Source of the DNA: Schwartzia sp. (in: firmicutes)
GTDB taxonomy: Bacteria > Bacillota > Negativicutes > Selenomonadales > Selenomonadaceae
DNA: 47,611 nucleotides
Direction of reading: 5' to 3'
Assembly: GCA_017444395.1 (NCBI GenBank)
Contig: JAFSWT010000039.1
Span: forward strand, 1-47,611
Below are positions 143-9,605 of the stretch, in pieces (position 1 is the stretch's first letter; the number at the start of each line of letters is the position of its first letter). The notes beneath the pieces were generated by a model. It ran no database searches. It saw only the letters and a list, made by a program, of their open reading frames with translations, and was not told the DNA's origin. The position numbers were made by a program, and so were the translations under genes.

Positions 143-267
143 AGAAGGGACTGCCGTACGTTTTAGTGAACGTGCGACAGCCCCAAGAGTTCGTGAATTA
201 TAATGGCCGAAGTAATATTGGGAGAGAGATTATAGGCCGGGGCGCGGCCCCGGTAGGAGGAAAGACG

Positions 268-1536
268 ATGGGAAAACGGAAGAGAAGATTTATCCTGCTG
301 CTTTGGTTTGTCATCACGCTGGCGGCGTCGGGGATTGCCGGTGCCGAGCGGTACGACGCGTCGGGGACGCCACTGCGCCTGGATCGGGTGCTGGTGATGA
401 GCCGCCACAATCTCCGCGCGCCTTTGGACAGCGGTATAGCGGCAATCAGCCGCCTGACGCCCCATGAATGGTTCCAATGGACGGCGGCGCCGGGGGAGCT
501 TTCCCCCCGCGGCGGCGAGCTGGAGACGTTGATGGGGCAGTATTACCGCCAATGGCTGGAACAGGAGGAACTGATTCCCCGGAACTATGTGCCGGCGGAA
601 AATGAGGCGCGCTTTTACGCCAATTCGTATCAGCGCACCATTGCCACGGCGCAGTATTTTTCCAGCGGCATGCTGCCGATCGCCAATGTGTGCGTCGAGC
701 GGCATTTCGCGCTGAATGAGCCGGACCCTGTGTTCCTGCCTGGCTTCAAGGGCGTCAGTGACGAATTCGTGGCGCGGGTCATGGCGGAGATTGAAGCAAT
801 CGGTGGCACCCGGGCAAGGGGTGAAGCGCTGGCGCCTGAAGCGGCGCTGGTGGCGGAGGTCCTCGACTATCCGGAGTCGGAGGCGGCGCGGGAAAGCGGG
901 CTGGACTTCTTCCCCGCCGACGATATGGAGACGGTATACACGGGCGAATACTTCGCCATCCGGGGCTCGCTGCGGCCGGCCATGCGTGCCGCCGACGCTC
1001 TCGTCCTGCAATACTACGAGGAGAGCGACGCTTACAAAGCGGCCTTCGGCCACCGGTTGACGCGGGAGGATTGGCGCGGCATCGCGCGGCTCGGCTACAT
1101 GGGCGTCAATTCGTATTTCGAGCTGCCGGCGCTCTCCACCCGGTTCGCCCAGCCGCTGCTCAAAGTCATGCGGGACGAGCTGGCCCGGGACGGGCGGAAA
1201 TTTACCTTCCTCTGCGGCCATGACACGAACCTGGCGGCGGTGCTGACGGCGCTGGGCGCCGGGGACTACGAACTGCCCGATGCCGTCGAGGAGAAAACGC
1301 CCATCGGCGGCAAGCTGACCATCGAGAAATGGGTGGCCCCCGACGGGCAGGCGTATGCCGCGCTGTCACTGGTGTATCAGAGCACAGAGCAGATTCGCCG
1401 GCGGCAGCCGCTGGATCTCGTCCATCCGCCGTCCATCGTTCCGCTTCGTCTGGCCGGCCTGACACCGGCAGGAGACGGGCTGTACCGGTACAGCGACCTG
1501 GTGGCGCGGCTTGACAGCGTCATAGAGTCCCGGTGA
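268..1536 (+). CDS. Secreted histidine-type phosphatase (histidine acid phosphatase/phytase-like)
   Basis: A 422-residue exported phosphomonoesterase of the histidine acid phosphatase superfamily, which forms a phosphohistidine intermediate. The N-terminus is a signal peptide (basic MGKRKRR, hydrophobic core, cleavage near AGA-E at about residue 26). The catalytic motif is SRHNLRAP with His47; the usual RHG is RHN here. The proton-donor HD motif is GHDTN at about residues 318-319. Length is normal for the family. The ATG at 268 is chosen because GGAGGAAA lies just before it and the signal peptide begins there; the frame stays open upstream to a GTG at 166, but those residues look unlike a protein start. 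The substrate (phytate, sugar phosphate or other) cannot be read from sequence. The amidase gene follows on the same strand. Confidence 0.88.
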   Translation: MGKRKRRFILLLWFVITLAASGIAGAERYDASGTPLRLDRVLVMSRHNLRAPLDSGIAAISRLTPHEWFQWTAAPGELSPRGGELETLMGQYYRQWLEQEELIPRNYVPAENEARFYANSYQRTIATAQYFSSGMLPIANVCVERHFALNEPDPVFLPGFKGVSDEFVARVMAEIEAIGGTRARGEALAPEAALVAEVLDYPESEAARESGLDFFPADDMETVYTGEYFAIRGSLRPAMRAADALVLQYYEESDAYKAAFGHRLTREDWRGIARLGYMGVNSYFELPALSTRFAQPLLKVMRDELARDGRKFTFLCGHDTNLAAVLTALGAGDYELPDAVEEKTPIGGKLTIEKWVAPDGQAYAALSLVYQSTEQIRRRQPLDLVHPPSIVPLRLAGLTPAGDGLYRYSDLVARLDSVIESR

Positions 1537-1690
1537 TTGGATCGCAGCCAGGATTCTCCGCCGTCTTGCCGGAAGCAGTACAAGAAACAATAGCCAGGCT
1601 TCAAAAGGGCGGCAAATGCGTGGCGGCAAAAGCAAATCCACGCATGGTTGCCGTTGCCGGAAGACAGGTTGCGGGAAAGGAGACTTGTCC
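1537..1690 (+). other. Intergenic region between phosphatase and amidase genes
   Basis: 154 bases without a convincing gene. A short inverted repeat (GCGTGG around 1620 and CACGC around 1640) could fold, but it has no T-run and I see no riboswitch consensus. The GGAAAGGAG ribosome binding site of the amidase lies at its end. Confidence 0.3.
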
Positions 1691-2302
1691 ATGCAGGAAA
1701 TATCGCGTCGGGAATTTCTGCGGCGCACGTTGGCCGTGGCATTCGGCGCGGCGTTTTTGCCGTTAGCCGGTATGGGAAGCGCGGAGGCTTCGCGGCTCGC
1801 CGAAGAGGATATGAAAGGGGTATATATTCATAAGCGGTTCTTCAGCTTCAGCGAGTATGTAGAGCGCCCCGCGACGGAACGGATCGTGATCCACCATACC
1901 GAAATCGCGGATATGGCGAAGGGCGGGACGGCGGCAATGATTCACGCGCTGCACAAGCGAAAGGGATGGGCCGGCATCGGCTATCACTATTTCATCCGGC
2001 CGGACGGCATGATCGAGCAGGGACGTCAGCCGCCGATGGCGGGCGCGCACGCCTGGCAAAACAACGAAAACACCGTCGGGGTTTGCCTTGCCGGGAATTT
2101 CAACGAAAGCCGTCCGACGGAAGCACAAATGGCCGCCGCGAAGGAGCTGGCGGCGTGGCTCTGCCGCGCCTATCGGCTCGCGCCGGGCAAGCGGGGCGTG
2201 ATTGTCGGCCACCGCGATCTCAACGAGGGCACGACCTGCCCCGGCAAATATCTGTACCCGCGTCTCAACGAAATCCGCGCTTATTGCGAGGCGCACGCAT
2301 GA
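1691..2302 (+). CDS. Tat-exported N-acetylmuramoyl-L-alanine amidase (Amidase_2/PGRP fold)
   Basis: A 203-residue zinc amidase predicted to cleave the bond between N-acetylmuramic acid and the stem peptide outside the cytoplasm. The N-terminus carries a twin-arginine signal, SRREFLRR at residues 5-12, followed by a hydrophobic stretch and an AEA-type cleavage site near residue 33. The Amidase_2 domain spans about residues 60-195. Candidate zinc ligands are His68 (IVIHHTE), His174 (GHRDL) and Cys183 (TTCPGK); GYHYFIRPDG is the usual core motif. The ATG at 1691 follows a GGAAAGGAG site and starts the signal peptide; 25 further open codons upstream lack such features. A Tat signal suggests folding, perhaps with zinc loading, before export. 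Whether it serves turnover, recycling or defence is not decided by the context. Confidence 0.88.
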   Translation: MQEISRREFLRRTLAVAFGAAFLPLAGMGSAEASRLAEEDMKGVYIHKRFFSFSEYVERPATERIVIHHTEIADMAKGGTAAMIHALHKRKGWAGIGYHYFIRPDGMIEQGRQPPMAGAHAWQNNENTVGVCLAGNFNESRPTEAQMAAAKELAAWLCRAYRLAPGKRGVIVGHRDLNEGTTCPGKYLYPRLNEIRAYCEAHA

Positions 2303-3134: not shown

Positions 3135-3512
3135 TCACACGGTGTCAATGGACGCGATGGCGCCGGGACGGATCGTGATATGGTAGATGCGGAAAAGATC
3201 CAGATCGTACCACCACTCTTCGTCGCCGTTGTCATATACAACCTTGATGTCCCAATACTGCACATTGTCCCTCGGGTCGAAATCGAGGAAGAGTTCCTGC
3301 CCCGGATAGAGGACATTTTTGCCGAGTTCGTCCTGGTAAATCCACTCGTTCATGTGTGCCGGGCTGAGATAAATCTCGCGGATGATACGGCCCGTACCGT
3401 TCTCCAGTTCAAAATTCGGGCTGCCGCGCGCGCCGGCCACCGCGACGCCGGAAACGGCGACCGCCAGCATAAGCATGGCGATCAACAAACCTGCAAAACG
3501 TGATTTCTTCAT
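3135..3512 (-). CDS. Small secreted protein of unknown function
   Basis: 125 residues with a clear signal peptide (MKKSR, hydrophobic core, cleavage near VAVAGA at residue 27). The mature part is short, acidic and rich in Trp and Tyr, with ENGTGRIIREIYLSP near the start and IKVVYDNGDEEWWYDLD near the end. The alternating pattern suggests a compact beta-sandwich. I recall similar motifs in uncharacterised exported proteins of anaerobes but cannot name a family. The ATG at 3512 follows AGGAGG at good spacing. It is the last gene of a leftward group of exported proteins and has its own terminator. Low-molecular-weight envelope or secreted protein is the most that can be said. Confidence 0.75.
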   Translation of the reverse strand: MKKSRFAGLLIAMLMLAVAVSGVAVAGARGSPNFELENGTGRIIREIYLSPAHMNEWIYQDELGKNVLYPGQELFLDFDPRDNVQYWDIKVVYDNGDEEWWYDLDLFRIYHITIRPGAIASIDTV

Positions 3513-3623: not shown

Positions 3624-6600
3624 TCACCACATCCGGCGCAGCGTCAGGAAGCACATGGTCTCGCTGTCATGCGCGCCCCGCTGCAGGCCCGCCTCACCCG
3701 TCAGGGTCCAGCCGGGGGCGAACTCGGCTTCCCCGGAGAGCGACAGGACCATATGCGTCTTGTCCTGCCGGCTTGCCATGTCGTAGCTTTGGCCGTCATA
3801 GCCCTCGTAGCGGAAGGACAGCTTCGGGTCAGCGCCGGCGAAAGCGTGCTTCACCCCCACCCGCAGGCCGTAGCTGCCGTTGGGGAGGTAGCGCCGGAAC
3901 TCGACACCGAGGCCGGCGGCGAAGTAATTGCTGGTGAGGCTCCCGACATGGTGATTATAGATGCCGGCGCCGGTCTCGCGGTAGCCGTTTTGCCAGAGCC
4001 GGGAAAACTGCGCGTTGACGTAGGGGCTGGTGTGCCAGATCTTGCCGGTGCCGCCCTGGAGGTCGTACCGGTACTCGCCGCCAATCTCAAAGAGGTGGCT
4101 GCGGTAGCGGGCGTCGGTAGCCAGGCCGAGGCCGGTGAGGCTTCGCTGCAAATGTGTCCGCATCGTGCCCCCGTCCACGTAGAACATGAAGTCGCTCTTC
4201 TTCCCGCGGCGCCCGGCGTAAAGGCCAACGCGGGTATCCCGGAACTTGCTCATGGCGCTGGTGTCGGCAAAGGAGGTCATGCCGTAGCTCACGAAGGCGC
4301 CCGCCCGCCATGTCTTGCCGTAGGCCCGGTCCCAGCCGAGGGCCAGGGCGGTGCCGTGGTAGTCCGTGTCGCTCTGGACGTGGCCCCAGTTCTTACCTGC
4401 TTTGAACCAGAAATCGTTGTCCACCGGCTGGGCGAGGTTCAGGGAAATCGCCGGGCCTTCGTCCCGGGTGTCCGCCAGATGCTCCGCCGGCAGACGGAGG
4501 GTGACGGGACGGCTGGCAAAGGCTTCGGCCAGATGCACCGAAATGAGATGGGAAACGAGGGTGCTCTGCTGGGCCAAGGCCGTCGATTTGGCGGCGGCGG
4601 GGGCGCTGACGGCGTCGAGGGCCGCTTTCGTCCCCTCCGGCGTCAGGCTGTAAAGGGGGCGCAGTTGCTCCCGAAGAACGGCATCGCCACGGTTGGCGAT
4701 GGCCATCATCGCGCCGTAAGTCTCCGCCTGCCGCTCCGTCAGCGTGCCGAGGTTGTTGGCGGCGCTGGCGGTAATGACGAGGCTGTCCCCCGCTACCGAG
4801 GTTTGCTCGTTCAAGAGCCCCAGCGTCACGCCGGTCGCGGTCTGTTCCGTCTCCGTGGTCTCGGTGGCGGGCTTTGTCGTCGCCGGCTTCGTGGCCACCG
4901 GCTTTGTCGTTGCCGGTTTCGTTTCCGGCTTCGCGGCCCCGGAGTTTCCCGGCTTCTGGTCCCCGTTGCCCTTTCCGTCGTCCGGCAGGGACGGCTCCGG
5001 GGCCGGTGGATCATCAGAGGATGGGGAGGCGCCGGCGGCGGTAACCGTCACCGCCGTTCCCGACACGGCGCTGGTTCCGTCCACGCTGCCGGAAATGCTG
5101 GTATCGGTGGCGGTTTGCGTCTTGCCGGTCACGCCACCGGTCGCCGTCAGCACCGTGAACCGTTCGCCCGGCAAAAGCCCCAGCACCGCGACCTTCGACC
5201 CCTGGACCTCGGCCGCGCCGTTCACCAGGATGTCGCCTTTCGTGCCGCCGGCGATGCCCAGCAGCGTCCCGTCGGAGAGCAGGCTGCCGTTGATGGTCAG
5301 GCGATCGTTCCTGGTGAGGGGGCCGATGGTGCCGTGGTTGATGAACCAGCCCGTGGTGTCGTCGGAGAAAGCCGCCGGCATCCGCGCCTTCACGTCGTTG
5401 AGGGTAAAGGTGCCGCCGCGAAGCATTGCCCCCGGGGCCACGTTCACGTTCAGGACGTTCGCCTGGCCGCTGTATTGCAGCGTCCCGGCGTTGACGTTGA
5501 TCTTCAGGTTGTCCTCCCCGAAGATATTGCCGCCGTAAGCGATATCGGCATTGAAGTTCAGCTGCGTCACGAGGTCGGGGATATAGTCGGCATAGGCATA
5601 GCTTTCGCCGTTGTACTGGATCTTCAGCGCCTCTCCTGCGCCGGCAGCGTCATAGGCGCCCTCGCACTCCTTCGTGCCGAACTGCTTCCAGTCCGAGGTG
5701 ATGTTCCCCGTGATGCTCGCGCCCTCGTTGATATTGATATTCTTGACAAAGGCGTTTTTCCCGATGTAGATGGCGTTCTCGCCGCCCGTCAGCGCGCCGG
5801 AGAGGTCATAGCGCTCCACCATCGCGCCGTTCAGCTCATTGACAGCCGCGTTGTATTGATTGGCGTTCATATCGGTCAGGGAGAGATTTTGCGCCGAGCT
5901 GATTGCCCCGGTATTTTCGTTCACCTTCCGCTTGTAGCGGATATACGAGCCGCGGTATTCGTCTGCCGCGCCGTTGGAGCTGGAGCCGAAATCGAAACGG
6001 ATACCCGTGCCGCCCTGCCCGCTGGCCGTCACCGTGCCCGCCTGGTTCACGGTCTGACCGCTGCCGTAGGCAATCAGGACGCCGTTGCCCCGCAGGCCGT
6101 TGGCGTGAATTTCCGTCGCCTCGGGAATGATGAGCGTATTTCCCACGCCGTCCACCCGCACGCCCGTCGCGCCCGTGCCCCGGGTCAGGATGTTCGCCGC
6201 CTGCGTCACGGTGTTGTTCGAGCCGTAGATGTGGAGGCCGATGCCGAGGGGCACGCTGCTGTAGGTATTTTCGAGATACGCCGTGCCGTCGGCATTTCGC
6301 GCGAAGTAGCCCTGCGTGTTCGTGATCGTGCCGCCGTTGCCGTAGATGGATTTCCCGAAATACGCCCGGCGGTCAATCTTGTAGCCGAGATCCTGCATCA
6401 CCGCCAGCTCCACCTCCAGGAAGGAAGTGTAGTTGCTGTAGTCGCGATGGCTCATCATGCCCGCGGTTTGGAGATGGGAGCCTTCAAATTTCCAACCTTC
6501 AAAGCCATTCACGGGAAGCCCGTCGCGGCCGAAAAACTTCGCGCCGCCGAGGGCGTTTTTGACGTTATCGCCGACGAAATAGGCGTAGCCGTTCCCGTCG

Positions 6601-7520
6601 GCGTCAATTTTCTTGTTCACGATGAAAACATCGTTTACCGTCAAAGCGGGTTTTCCTTCGGCCGTCAGATCCGCGTTCAATTTCGCCAGGTTGCTTGTCT
6701 CGTCGTCCGGCGAAACGAAGAACATCCCCGGCTTTGCCATCTTGCCGGTTTGATCCATCAGGTGCATCGCCCAGGATTTTTCCGTCACGTCGGAATAAAT
6801 GCGACAATAGGAGCCTTTCTTGCCTTCCGCCCCTACCCCGACGGTATCGTCTTCCAGCGAGATGCCCAGCGCGTGCCCCAGCTCATGGCGGAACGTGCCG
6901 ACGAAGTCCGCCGCCTGCTCATTGGTCGGAAGCACCGTGTCCGTGTCCACCCACCAGCCCAGTTCCGCGTCCGTACGCGCCGCGCCCAAAAACTTGCCGA
7001 CGGCAATTTTGCTGTAGGCATATGCACCAGCCGGAGGGATGTTGTTGTTCAGCGTGTCTTGCTCCAGGACCGAATATTCTCCGCCGTTCTGGATTTGGTC
7101 CATGACAAAATTTTGCGACCACGATTTTGTCGTGGCCTCGCCGGTAGAGTTCATGGAAATCGTGCCGGCGCTGGCGTTCTGCCGGTTTTCCGTATCGACG
7201 AAGATTTGCCACGGCTGCGTATTCTTTGCGCCGTCGCCGAGAAGCCCCGACCAGTAGGCGGCGCTGGAAACCGTAGCGTCGATGAGATCGTCCGACAACG
7301 TGTACGTCGAAGGGTCAACGTACCAGGAGCCGGTCCGTCCGAGCCCGACATTCTGGGGGAAGAACGTGAGCTCCGCGAATACCTGCCCGTTGTGGTACAG
7401 ACGCTCCATCGGAACGCTCACCGTATCCGTATTCGCATAGGCGAAGGACGGCGACGACGCCAGCCCCACCGCGATTGCCGCCAGAATCAGCCGTGTCAAT
7501 TTCCTTTTACTCCGTTTCAT
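3624..7520 (-). CDS. Autotransporter with an N-terminal metzincin-like zinc protease domain
   Basis: A 1298-residue type V secreted protein. A signal peptide (residues 1-29, ending AYA-N) leads to a passenger. HELGHALG at residues 212-219 is a zinc-protease HExxHxxG motif. The third histidine of a metzincin is not at the standard place; the candidate is His349 in SHLQTAGMMS, whose GMMS resembles a Met-turn and is followed by ELAVMQDLGY. A long gap before the third His is known in leishmanolysin-type (M8) enzymes. Residues 390-840 look like a beta-helix stalk (NT and G-rich repeats). A Pro/Thr/Lys-rich linker follows at about 880-930. The last 280 residues form the autotransporter barrel and end in Trp. 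The ATG at 7520 has GAGAGG eight bases before it. An outer membrane is required for this protein. Confidence 0.85.
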   Translation of the reverse strand: MKRSKRKLTRLILAAIAVGLASSPSFAYANTDTVSVPMERLYHNGQVFAELTFFPQNVGLGRTGSWYVDPSTYTLSDDLIDATVSSAAYWSGLLGDGAKNTQPWQIFVDTENRQNASAGTISMNSTGEATTKSWSQNFVMDQIQNGGEYSVLEQDTLNNNIPPAGAYAYSKIAVGKFLGAARTDAELGWWVDTDTVLPTNEQAADFVGTFRHELGHALGISLEDDTVGVGAEGKKGSYCRIYSDVTEKSWAMHLMDQTGKMAKPGMFFVSPDDETSNLAKLNADLTAEGKPALTVNDVFIVNKKIDADGNGYAYFVGDNVKNALGGAKFFGRDGLPVNGFEGWKFEGSHLQTAGMMSHRDYSNYTSFLEVELAVMQDLGYKIDRRAYFGKSIYGNGGTITNTQGYFARNADGTAYLENTYSSVPLGIGLHIYGSNNTVTQAANILTRGTGATGVRVDGVGNTLIIPEATEIHANGLRGNGVLIAYGSGQTVNQAGTVTASGQGGTGIRFDFGSSSNGAADEYRGSYIRYKRKVNENTGAISSAQNLSLTDMNANQYNAAVNELNGAMVERYDLSGALTGGENAIYIGKNAFVKNININEGASITGNITSDWKQFGTKECEGAYDAAGAGEALKIQYNGESYAYADYIPDLVTQLNFNADIAYGGNIFGEDNLKINVNAGTLQYSGQANVLNVNVAPGAMLRGGTFTLNDVKARMPAAFSDDTTGWFINHGTIGPLTRNDRLTINGSLLSDGTLLGIAGGTKGDILVNGAAEVQGSKVAVLGLLPGERFTVLTATGGVTGKTQTATDTSISGSVDGTSAVSGTAVTVTAAGASPSSDDPPAPEPSLPDDGKGNGDQKPGNSGAAKPETKPATTKPVATKPATTKPATETTETEQTATGVTLGLLNEQTSVAGDSLVITASAANNLGTLTERQAETYGAMMAIANRGDAVLREQLRPLYSLTPEGTKAALDAVSAPAAAKSTALAQQSTLVSHLISVHLAEAFASRPVTLRLPAEHLADTRDEGPAISLNLAQPVDNDFWFKAGKNWGHVQSDTDYHGTALALGWDRAYGKTWRAGAFVSYGMTSFADTSAMSKFRDTRVGLYAGRRGKKSDFMFYVDGGTMRTHLQRSLTGLGLATDARYRSHLFEIGGEYRYDLQGGTGKIWHTSPYVNAQFSRLWQNGYRETGAGIYNHHVGSLTSNYFAAGLGVEFRRYLPNGSYGLRVGVKHAFAGADPKLSFRYEGYDGQSYDMASRQDKTHMVLSLSGEAEFAPGWTLTGEAGLQRGAHDSETMCFLTLRRMW

Positions 7521-7565
7521 GTCCGTATCCTCTCTTCCCGACGGCAAGATGTTTATCCACACTAT

Positions 7566-7595
7566 ATGATATAACATCCCCCTCGCTTCCCGCAA
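7566..7595 (-). promoter_or_regulatory. Candidate promoter of the autotransporter gene
   Basis: On the minus strand TTGCGG (7595-7590) and TATCAT (7571-7566) are separated by 18 bases. The predicted leader is about 40 bases, with the GAGAGG ribosome binding site near its end. Both boxes match only moderately. Confidence 0.4.
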
Positions 7596-7721: not shown

Positions 7722-9605
7722 TTAAATCGGCTGCTCGGGCGCCGTATCCATCGCCATCGTCCCGCTCTTGACGGAGAAAGGCACCGTGTCAGAGAGGAAC
7801 GGATCGTTGTGGCTGGTCTCGAAGCGGAATACGAAGGCGTAATCCCCGTCGGGCAGCGGCTCATCCCGCAGAACCGCTTCGCTTTCCAGCGTGAACGCCT
7901 CGCCCTCCACGAGCTTCTCCGTCGAGTCGAGCACAAACATCGGTGTCACCACGTCGCCGGGACGGAGCCGTACGACTTCCCGGTCCACCATGCCGTTTCG
8001 CAGCACGCGGTACGCGCCGAGAATCTCGAACGTCTGCCGCTCCATGTCAAAGGCCGACTGAAGCTGGTATTTTTTCCCGTTCAGCCTGATGGGAGAAATG
8101 TAGATGTTGTAGTCCGGCTGCTGCTCTGCCAGCTCCATCAGGAGCGTGTGCCCGTTCAGCGCCGGCCACTGCCCGTCCAGTTCGTCCCGGAAAATGCCCC
8201 GTTCCCAATCAACGGAAATCTTGCTGTCGCTGCCCAGTCGCAGGAAATCATCGCCATAGGGGAGATACAGCGAGCACGCCGCACGGCTGACCACATTCAG
8301 CGCGTCGGGCGGAAGGGCCGCCGTCGCCATGTTGTTTTCGTCCAACGACACGGGGAAGCCTTGCAAGCTGCTCGTATCGAAAGCAAACCACGGCGTACCG
8401 TCTGCTTCGCCTGCCGCCATTTTGCCGTAAAGCGACGCGAAGGCATCGTTCGCGCCGATGAGCTTTCCGTATGCCTCGCTGGTTTCCTCCTGCCCGGACA
8501 GGTTGTAGTACACGGAAATCCCGTTCCCGTACCGCCGGTATTTTCCTCCGGCCTTGCAGACGACGGCCCGGCGGATTGCCTCTGCCACGGCGTCGGCACT
8601 CTTGACGCCCTCCATCGCCCCAGCCAGCGCGCCCAGATCCACCATCTCGAAGCCGCCGCCGATTTCCTCGTCGCCGCCCAGTTCGCCGTACCGCTCAACG
8701 CCATTCGCCACGCGGTCCAGCGCCGTGAAAAAATAGTTCGGGTCGGCCCCGGCCGCTTGAAGCGCCTCCGCGCCCAGCCTGCCGTACGCGTCGTTCAATG
8801 CGGGGAGCGCCGAGAGATCCAGCACGGAAAACGTCGCCATTTCCTGCGTCTCTTTCTCTGCGCAGCGGGCAAAATAGGTGTCGCAGATGATTTTCCCGAG
8901 GGCGGCCCCGTCCATGCCGGGATTCTTTGCCAGCGCGCCGAGCCATTCGGCGTAGTCAGTGCCGTGCCCCGGCATGAGCTCCTGCGACGCCGCCATATAG
9001 CGAGCGAATCCATGCAGGGAATTTGCCGTTTCGAGGCTCGCCATCAGGCAGGTGTCAAAGCAGACAAGATCCAACGGGGGATGCGCCGCGTCCGCTTGCA
9101 TCGCGCCGGCCAACGCGAGCCGCAGGGCGTTCAGCCCGATCGTCTCGTCGTGCCGCTCATCCCAGCAGACGCCGCCAAGGCTGCCACCGCCGTGATTCCA
9201 TATCACCAGCGCCCGATGGCCGGCCGGGCATTTTTCCCCGGCGAAGCGAAGAAAATCCCGGAGCGTAGTACCGTTTCCCATGCTGGTGTCCGGCAGCCGC
9301 TCCACCTCATGGAAGCCCGTGCTGTCGTAAATGTACCGCCCCAGCTCCTCCGAGGGGATTCCGTCGGTGTGCCACTTTTCCGCGCCGCCCGTCTGGATCG
9401 CCACCTTGACATTTTCCGGCAGCGGCACAGATCGCAGCTCCTCGAGATTCGCCGAGGCGAATTTCCCCTCGGTTTCCAGATCCGAGCCGCAGATATACCA
9501 ATAGATGGCCCATGTATCGGACGCCGCCGCACAAGCGGCGCCGCCCAAAAGGAATCCCGCCGCCAGGAAAACGGCAAGGCACAGGCGCAAAATCTTCTTG
9601 TTTAT
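7722..9605 (-). CDS. Secreted clostripain-family (C11) cysteine protease
   Basis: A caspase-fold cysteine peptidase of family C11, expected to act outside the cytoplasm. The His-Cys dyad is visible: His133 in WNHGGGSLGG and Cys181 in FDTCLMAS (numbered from the TTG at 9590). Length of about 625 residues fits the family with a C-terminal beta domain. The start is unusual. The first standard start in frame is TTG at 9590, but it lies 23 bases from the only good ribosome site, AAGGAAGG. Exactly eight bases after that site stands ATA at 9605, which would add INKKI and give a normal basic signal-peptide start before RLCLAVFLAAGFLL. Either an ATA start or a mutated ATG is possible. An in-frame stop lies two codons further up. 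Arg specificity is typical of clostripain but not shown here. Confidence 0.85.
   Translation of the reverse strand: MNKKILRLCLAVFLAAGFLLGGAACAAASDTWAIYWYICGSDLETEGKFASANLEELRSVPLPENVKVAIQTGGAEKWHTDGIPSEELGRYIYDSTGFHEVERLPDTSMGNGTTLRDFLRFAGEKCPAGHRALVIWNHGGGSLGGVCWDERHDETIGLNALRLALAGAMQADAAHPPLDLVCFDTCLMASLETANSLHGFARYMAASQELMPGHGTDYAEWLGALAKNPGMDGAALGKIICDTYFARCAEKETQEMATFSVLDLSALPALNDAYGRLGAEALQAAGADPNYFFTALDRVANGVERYGELGGDEEIGGGFEMVDLGALAGAMEGVKSADAVAEAIRRAVVCKAGGKYRRYGNGISVYYNLSGQEETSEAYGKLIGANDAFASLYGKMAAGEADGTPWFAFDTSSLQGFPVSLDENNMATAALPPDALNVVSRAACSLYLPYGDDFLRLGSDSKISVDWERGIFRDELDGQWPALNGHTLLMELAEQQPDYNIYISPIRLNGKKYQLQSAFDMERQTFEILGAYRVLRNGMVDREVVRLRPGDVVTPMFVLDSTEKLVEGEAFTLESEAVLRDEPLPDGDYAFVFRFETSHNDPFLSDTVPFSVKSGTMAMDTAPEQPI

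What the first reader, a model, noticed from the sequence alone, without database searches (positions are those of the whole stretch)
3624..7520. Autotransporter passenger with a split metzincin zinc site
HELGHALG is followed about 130 residues later by SHLQTAGMMS and ELAVMQDLGY. This resembles the leishmanolysin-type arrangement, where the third His is distant and followed by a Met-turn. Zinc-protease passengers on autotransporters of diderm Firmicutes appear little studied.
Basis: partly seen in the sequence, partly recalled or inferred. Interest (0 to 1): 0.5.

Follow-up and report, generated by a model that had tools for sequence, protein, structure and literature searches.

The report
Surface-displayed leishmanolysin-like zinc protease, predicted
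A probably rumen-dwelling bacterium carries a gene for a large outer-membrane protein whose tip looks like a zinc-dependent protein-cutting enzyme distantly related to leishmanolysin, an unusual pairing whose activity is still untested.

Summary
The minus-strand gene 3624-7520 (1,298 aa) encodes a signal peptide, a domain with HELGH (212-216), H349, M355/M356 and H358, a pertactin-like beta-helix and an autotransporter barrel. H212, E213, H216, H349 and H358 are invariant in 83 of 83 rows; M356 is Met in 78. The usual third-His site (222) is never His; H216-H349 floats (110-150 residues) while H349-M356 is fixed (7-8). The AlphaFold2 model (pLDDT 93.5) matches leishmanolysin best among solved structures (Z 12.0, rmsd 5.7). 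Residues 303-400, without HExxH, align to bacterial M8 peptidases, pairing H349 with their third His and M356 with their Met-turn Met (score 33.3; 0 of 400 shuffles reach it). Against: no peptidase model passes its cut-off for the window protein, and zinc geometry could not be measured. Relatives lie in Negativicutes and sporadically in Proteobacteria. Activity is untested.

The parts
3624..7520 (-). autotransporter gene, 1,298 aa plus stop (P0001)
7434..7520 (-). likely Sec signal peptide, residues 1-29, ending in AYA before N30
   Evidence: read from the translation; no signal-peptide program was run
6366..7430 (-). M8-like metzincin domain, about residues 31-385
   Evidence: AF2 model pLDDT 93.5; 1lml Z 12.0; conservation
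6873..6887 (-). HELGH, residues 212-216: two predicted zinc His and the general-base Glu
   Evidence: H212, E213, H216 in 83 of 83; helix 206-217 in the model
6474..6476 (-). H349, predicted third zinc ligand
   Evidence: 83 of 83; aligned with the third His of bacterial M8
6453..6455 (-). M356, predicted Met-turn methionine
   Evidence: Met in 78 of 83, Gln in 4, Ile in 1; aligned with Met of ELMT of M8
6447..6449 (-). H358, invariant His two residues after the predicted Met-turn Met, where astacins have the zinc-binding switch Tyr
   Evidence: 83 of 83; place of the Tyr from PMC9848320, passages
6390..6416 (-). C-terminal helix of the catalytic domain (residues 369-377) leading into DLGY
5112..6359 (-). 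beta-helix stalk, about residues 388-803
   Evidence: model mf99d3ae198d3; pertactin match Z 14.5, rmsd 4.4, 325 aligned
4833..5078 (-). low-confidence linker, residues 815-896, with a Pro/Thr/Lys-rich stretch; a long form shared with only one other (L050) of 61 rows
   Evidence: pLDDT about 30; lengths
3627..4736 (-). helical linker and autotransporter beta-barrel, residues about 929-1298, ending in Trp
   Evidence: PF03797; NalP translocator Z 33.9, EstA Z 33.0; 60 of 60 relatives aligned to the C-terminus end in Trp

Best explanation
A type Va (classical) autotransporter whose N-terminal passenger head is a zinc endopeptidase of the metzincin type with a leishmanolysin-like (M8-like) split zinc site. 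Inferred working: the protein crosses the inner membrane by Sec; the C-terminal barrel inserts in the outer membrane; the beta-helix stalk carries the head out, distal to the membrane. The head binds one zinc through H212, H216 and H349, with E213 as general base and M356 as the hydrophobic floor; H358 sits near and may bind zinc or steady the transition state. There is little room for a propeptide between the signal peptide and the fold, so folding only after export, rather than a cysteine switch, may be what protects the cell. The likely job is cutting external protein (dietary, microbial or host glycoprotein) in the rumen. Shown by computation: gene architecture, conservation, fold similarity, similarity of the third-His segment to M8. 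Inferred: zinc binding, activity, substrate, habitat, order of events.
For: Invariant H212/E213/H216/G219/H349 in 83 of 83 rows and 37 of 37; residue 222 never His in 83; best solved-structure match leishmanolysin, Foldseek E 0.02 prob 0.75, VIA Z 12.0, 220 aligned, rmsd 5.7, ahead of matrixins at Z 6.8-9.1; hhalign of the HExxH region E 1.5e-5, probability 80% and of the third-His segment alone E 1.5e-4, probability 51%, or 3.1e-5 and 73% against the trimmed M8 profile (E-values for one pairwise comparison); 0 of 200, 0 of 100 and 0 of 100 shuffles reach the score 33.3; a separate set of three proteobacterial relatives scores 35.1. Barrel and stalk.
Against: For the window protein no Pfam or NCBIfam peptidase model passes its cut-off, and PF01457 is not hit. 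Over the 83 rows the weak Pfam hits favour Matrixin (35 rows, best E 0.0013) and Astacin (11 rows), with M8 not among the 25 of 33 families shown. With the full-length profile the third-His segment is only a second, weak alignment to M8 (E 0.0032, probability 10%). M356 is replaced by Gln in 4 and Ile in 1 of 83. The leishmanolysin superposition is loose (rmsd 5.7) and Foldseek's E is only 0.02. The C-terminal segment profile found nothing among PDB sequences and no M8 hit in Pfam. In the proteobacterial set the M8 alignment pairs the Met but offsets the third His. No zinc, distance or activity data.
Confidence: 0.8

Rival explanations
1. H358, not H349, is the third zinc ligand, or both bind, so the site is not a plain leishmanolysin site.
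For: H358 is as invariant as H349 (83 of 83) and lies two residues after the predicted Met-turn Met, the place of the zinc-binding Tyr of astacins (PMC9848320, passages).
Against: H349 aligns with the third His of bacterial M8 peptidases, which have Gly, Thr or Ala at the place of H358.
Confidence: 0.15
2. A structural or adhesive passenger: a metzincin fold that is kept but is not a working protease.
For: No activity data; Met-turn Met is lost in 5 of 83; no peptidase model passes its cut-off for the window protein.
Against: H212, E213, H216 and H349 are kept in 83 of 83 rows, paralogues included, and in the proteobacterial rows inspected; dead copies would be expected to lose E213.
Confidence: 0.15
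3. A gluzincin-like site with Glu369 or Glu371 as third ligand.
For: E369 and E371 are invariant (83 of 83; 37 of 37) downstream of HExxH.
Against: In the larger set those columns lie inside a retrieval pattern; the helix they start corresponds to the metzincin C-terminal helix; the best folds are metzincins, with the M61 and M1 rows lower at Z 6.0 and 3.9-4.7.
Confidence: 0.04
4. Chance HExxH in an adhesin passenger.
Against: Invariance in 83 of 83 and the metzincin fold; chance in the shuffled domain 0.28%.
Confidence: 0.01

Closest known systems
Leishmanolysin, MEROPS family M8 (1lml; Pfam PF01457)
   Same: HExxHxxG, long insertion before the third His, Met-turn, C-terminal helix, best solved-structure match
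   Different: Insertion longer (H216 to H349 110-150 residues, against 62 from Gly to His in Leishmania, PMC11957388 passages); H349 to Met 7-8; Ser-His after the Met; one Cys in residues 31-400 against 19 in the GP63 M8 domain; little room for a propeptide; PF01457 not hit
Bacterial 'leishmanolysin-related zinc metalloendopeptidases' (e.g. Deinococcus L137, Streptomyces L138)
   Same: F/Y-x-G, (V/L)PV, GxH, M-T/S and DLGY blocks in the same order
   Different: HW and ELMT instead of HL and MMSH; no PF03797 barrel in the four whole proteins scanned
NCBIfam NF038122 metalloprotease (metallo_LGF)
   Same: 75 of 83 rows give some match, best E 5.2e-7
   Different: Window row 18.2 bits against a cut-off of 80, matching only profile positions 125-172 of 274, around HExxH; stretches of the other rows were not shown
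Protease autotransporters with serine-protease passengers (NalP, EspP, Hbp, SphB1, Hap)
   Same: Type Va layout: signal peptide, head, beta-helix or helical linker, barrel; NalP, EspP and Hbp barrels are among the structural matches
   Different: Those known to me are chymotrypsin- or subtilisin-type (recalled; reference titles for Hap and a surface subtilisin seen); here a zinc site

Membership tests
Metzincins, clan MA(M) | HExxHxxG with two zinc His, general-base Glu and Gly | tested here: met
   83 of 83
Metzincins, clan MA(M) | Compact extended motif HExxHxxGxxH/D | tested here: not met
   Residue 222 is never His (nor Asp) in 83 rows; leishmanolysins are described as having an insertion here (PMC11957388, passages)
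Metzincins, clan MA(M) | Met-turn below the zinc site | tested here: inconclusive
   Met at 356 in 78 of 83, Gln 4, Ile 1; aligned with Met of M8; geometry not measured. A Leu at this place is reported in one GP63 group
Metzincins, clan MA(M) | Metzincin fold | tested here: met
   1lml Z 12.0; MMP-11 Z 9.1; karilysin Z 8.7, model pLDDT 93.5
M8 leishmanolysin | Large insertion between the Gly and the third zinc His | tested here: met
   H216 to H349 spacing 110-150, H349 invariant; that H349 binds zinc is inferred
M8 leishmanolysin | Match to Pfam PF01457 over its cut-off | tested here: not met
   No PF01457 match up to E 1 for the window protein; not among the 25 of 33 families listed for the 83 rows. 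The whole-genome search also gave none, but its controls were silent too
M8 leishmanolysin | Sequence similarity of the third-His/Met-turn segment to M8 | tested here: met
   hhalign E 1.5e-4 (51%) and 3.1e-5 (73%), 0 of 400 shuffles reach the score; with the full profile only E 0.0032 (10%)
M8 leishmanolysin | Cys-switch propeptide and conserved cysteines (of GP63) | tested here: not met
   One Cys, 239, in residues 31-400; fold starts about residue 38, just after the signal peptide
Type Va autotransporter | C-terminal autotransporter barrel with terminal aromatic residue | tested here: met
   PF03797; NalP Z 33.9; Trp end
Type Va autotransporter | Beta-helical passenger stalk | tested here: met
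   Model, pertactin Z 14.5
Zinc endopeptidase | Zinc content and peptidase activity | not testable with these tools
   Needs bench work

The most novel reading that the evidence does not exclude
A new metzincin group on autotransporters in which an invariant His (H358), two residues after the Met-turn methionine, takes the part of the zinc-binding switch tyrosine of astacins, giving a four-histidine site on a split M8-like scaffold that folds only after export and needs no propeptide.
Probability: 0.3. Interest if true: 0.72.

Novelty: new variant of a known kind. Interest (0 to 1): 0.55.

Why it matters
If active, this would be a zinc-protease class among autotransporters, whose known protease passengers are serine proteases (recalled), present in several copies in some Negativicutes (up to six matches in one genome), many of them from the rumen, where surface proteolysis bears on protein breakdown. 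It also extends the split-site M8-like scaffold to outer-membrane display in two bacterial phyla and offers a clean test of what the residue after the Met-turn does. In the four named records inspected with a long intact gene the annotation says only 'autotransporter outer membrane beta-barrel domain-containing protein'.

Tried and rejected
Sequence searches against PDB gave no usable relative: 0 hits for the window domain; best E 0.039 for the 83-row profile, the hits lying mostly around HExxH of astacins, adamalysins and matrixins; 0 hits for the third-His segment. Pfam M8 gave no match in 299 genomes of the phylum, but its controls were silent too, so this shows nothing about absence; the same holds. 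Phage records and viral contigs gave no relative, so a phage link was dropped. The neighbouring clostripain gene was considered as a partner and dropped: no ORF in the flanks held for the 78 relative loci matched it at E 1e-6 (flanks are up to 6 kb and often shorter), and a hairpin followed by a T run that I read at about 7672-7635 (the scan did not list it) suggests separate transcripts. Gluzincin and chance readings were rejected as above. Papers: no paper in the library held both 'autotransporter' and 'leishmanolysin'; five held 'autotransporter' and 'metzincin', judged unrelated from titles and abstract starts; six held 'autotransporter', 'metalloprotease' and 'hexxh', judged likewise. PMC5491611 (passages) describes four classical autotransporters in Veillonella parvula, none as a metalloprotease. 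PMC1533851, PMC3741291, PMC1266349 and PMC6899020 were seen as passages only.
Full report
Observation. The gene lies on the minus strand, 7520 to 3624, 1,298 residues. HELGH is at 212-216, His at 349, Met at 355 and 356, ELAVMQDLGY from 371. Pfam finds the autotransporter beta-domain, residues 1037-1277, E 2.5e-24, and nothing else over a cut-off; NCBIfam gives nothing up to E 1 for the whole protein.

Conservation. A protein search of 151 genomes of the same family found matches in 48, some of them fragments and up to six matches in one genome (G062). From the loci fetched there and a few others I aligned 38 domains; one truncated row was dropped before counting. H212, E213, H216, G219, H349, S357 and H358 are identical in 37 of 37; M355 in 32 and M356 in 35. 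A second set from a scan of species genomes (230 relatives found, the best 80 stretches kept, 78 loci) gave 82 usable domains plus the window; two partial ORFs were dropped. The same residues are identical in 83 of 83; M355 is Met in 69; M356 is Met in 78, Gln in 4, Ile in 1. The scan patterns cover 363-371 and 377-386, so invariance there (E369, E371, D383, R384) is partly forced, but the zinc-site residues lie outside them. Residue 222, the usual third-ligand place, is never His in 83; H216-H349 varies from 110 to 150 residues while H349-M356 is 7 (75 rows) or 8 (8 rows). That is the mark of a floating insertion followed by a fixed third-ligand/Met-turn unit.

Fold. AlphaFold2 on residues 31-470 with the 83-row alignment gave mean pLDDT 93.5, pTM 0.92. 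Foldseek's top PDB match is leishmanolysin 1lml (E 0.02, probability 0.75; no match reaches E 0.001). VIA-align puts 1lml first at Z 12.0 (220 aligned, rmsd 5.7, model 13-412), then MMP-11 Z 9.1 and karilysin Z 8.7 (rmsd 3.8 and 3.5, 130 and 129 aligned), above the M61 row at Z 6.0 and M1 rows at 3.9-4.7. The best matrixin alignments end at model residues 351-356, beyond the helix 339-347 that follows the Met-turn segment. The tools returned no coordinates, so the distance between H349 and the HExxH helix was not measured.

Similarity to M8. Seven were fetched; the five scanned all pass the PF01457 cut-off, one narrowly (21.4 against 21 bits). Six were aligned. Against them the window family's profile matches at HExxH (E 1.5e-5, probability 80%), and, separately, the segment 303-400, which lacks HExxH, matches their third-His/Met-turn/DLGY segment (E 1.5e-4, 51%; 3.1e-5, 73%, against the trimmed profile). 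With the full 83-row profile that segment is only a second alignment, E 0.0032, 10%. The alignment pairs GSH349L with GSHW and G-M-M356-S with E-L-M-T. The score, 33.3, is not reached in 200 full column shuffles (maximum 25.3), nor in 100 shuffles within blocks of 10 columns (maximum 29.8) or 100 within blocks of 20 (maximum 17.4); the reversed profile scores 9.7. Three proteobacterial relatives alone score 35.1; there the Met pairs as before but the third His is offset. I did not run the same comparison against other metzincin families, so specificity for M8 rests on the split site and the fold ranking.

Membership. A large insertion between the Gly and the third His is called distinctive of leishmanolysins, and one GP63 group has Leu for the Met-turn Met (PMC11957388, passages). 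The window family has the insertion and the similar third-His segment, but no PF01457 hit (not among the 25 of 33 families shown, where Matrixin gave weak hits in 35 rows, best E 0.0013), no cysteine set and little room for a propeptide. I therefore call it M8-like, a probable distant relative, and do not file it as a member. The nearest NCBIfam model, NF038122, gives weak matches in 75 of 83 rows, best E 5.2e-7; the window row has 18.2 bits against a cut-off of 80, around HExxH only.

The rest of the protein. A model of residues 376-1298 (61 rows, mean pLDDT 80.6) shows a beta-helix that matches pertactin (Z 14.5, 325 aligned, rmsd 4.4) and a barrel that matches the NalP translocator (Z 33.9) and EstA (Z 33.0). 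All 60 relatives whose alignment reaches the C-terminus end in Trp. A disordered Pro/Thr/Lys-rich linker at 815-896 is long only in the window and L050, a genome of the same genus (2 of 61; 79-80 residues where the other 59 have 21-28).

Distribution. Matches: 6 of 398 genomes drawn over the phylum, all of the same family; 48 of 300 over the class, in three families. The 78 named loci (best 80 stretches of 230 relatives) bear mostly the names Selenomonas, Anaerovibrio, Schwartzia, Selenomonadaceae and Succiniclasticum, many titles naming the rumen; that the window's organism lives there is inferred. Sixteen plasmid records match, from Selenomonas, Pandoraea, Erwinia, Serratia, Raoultella, Salmonella and Bradyrhizobium. 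Six of 5,426 E. coli genomes carry a distant relative of the Pandoraea gene, over 27% of the query piece, five of them from cattle or farm sources; the one inspected keeps HELAH, SH and LMSH and lies beside transposase genes. No relative was found in phage records or viral contigs.

Mechanism. Inferred: Sec export, barrel insertion, head displayed at the end of the stalk; zinc held by H212, H216, H349; E213 activates water. H358 is the open point. In astacins the Tyr two positions after the Met-turn Met binds zinc and swings to steady the intermediate (PMC9848320, passages). H358 is at that distance from M356 and invariant, whereas the six bacterial M8 rows have Gly, Thr or Ala there. Whether it takes that part cannot be told without coordinates or mutants.

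Literature. No paper in the library holds both 'autotransporter' and 'leishmanolysin', and the few with 'autotransporter' plus 'metzincin' or 'HEXXH' looked unrelated by listing. This is absence in that library only; subscription papers are mostly missing.

Verdict. The finding is a new variant of a known kind: an M8-like split-site metzincin used as an autotransporter head. Activity, substrate and zinc geometry remain to be shown.

Noticed in passing
window 7722-9590, minus strand: Upstream gene encodes a clostripain-family (C11) peptidase, PF03415 E 2.1e-30; two putative peptidase genes sit side by side, but the pairing was not seen in the flanks held for 78 relative loci.
   Followed up: partly
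own genome, contig C135:4614-8259 (L039): A second copy, 59% identical over its first 800 residues, in the same genome; its barrel end continues in another reading frame from about 7627, so it is either broken or an assembly error.
   Followed up: no
window 3135-3512, minus strand: Small conserved protein downstream of the autotransporter; homologues in 5 of 78 relative loci (L051, L049, L048, L058, L119), no Pfam match up to E 1.
   Followed up: no
window 3669-7574, plus strand: A 1,301-aa open frame runs antisense over almost the whole autotransporter gene; taken as a by-product of composition, not tested.
   Followed up: no
L092, L097:5977-7278, L101, L103: The four relatives with Gln for the Met-turn Met all have Met, Val or Ala in place of Gly215 inside HExxH, against 7 of 78 rows with Met at 356; the two changes may be coupled.
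   Followed up: partly
L144 (E. coli strain C311): A distant relative occurs in 6 of 5,426 E. coli genomes, five from cattle or farm sources; in the one inspected it lies beside transposase genes.
   Followed up: partly
window 166-2302, plus strand: Histidine phosphatase (PF00328) followed by an N-acetylmuramoyl-alanine amidase (PF01510); of ten window ORFs scanned, others include DNA polymerases, dehydroquinate synthase and a type I restriction subunit.
   Followed up: no
L053, L060, L067, L069, L090, L097: Two copies of the gene within one locus in 6 of 78 relative loci.
   Followed up: no
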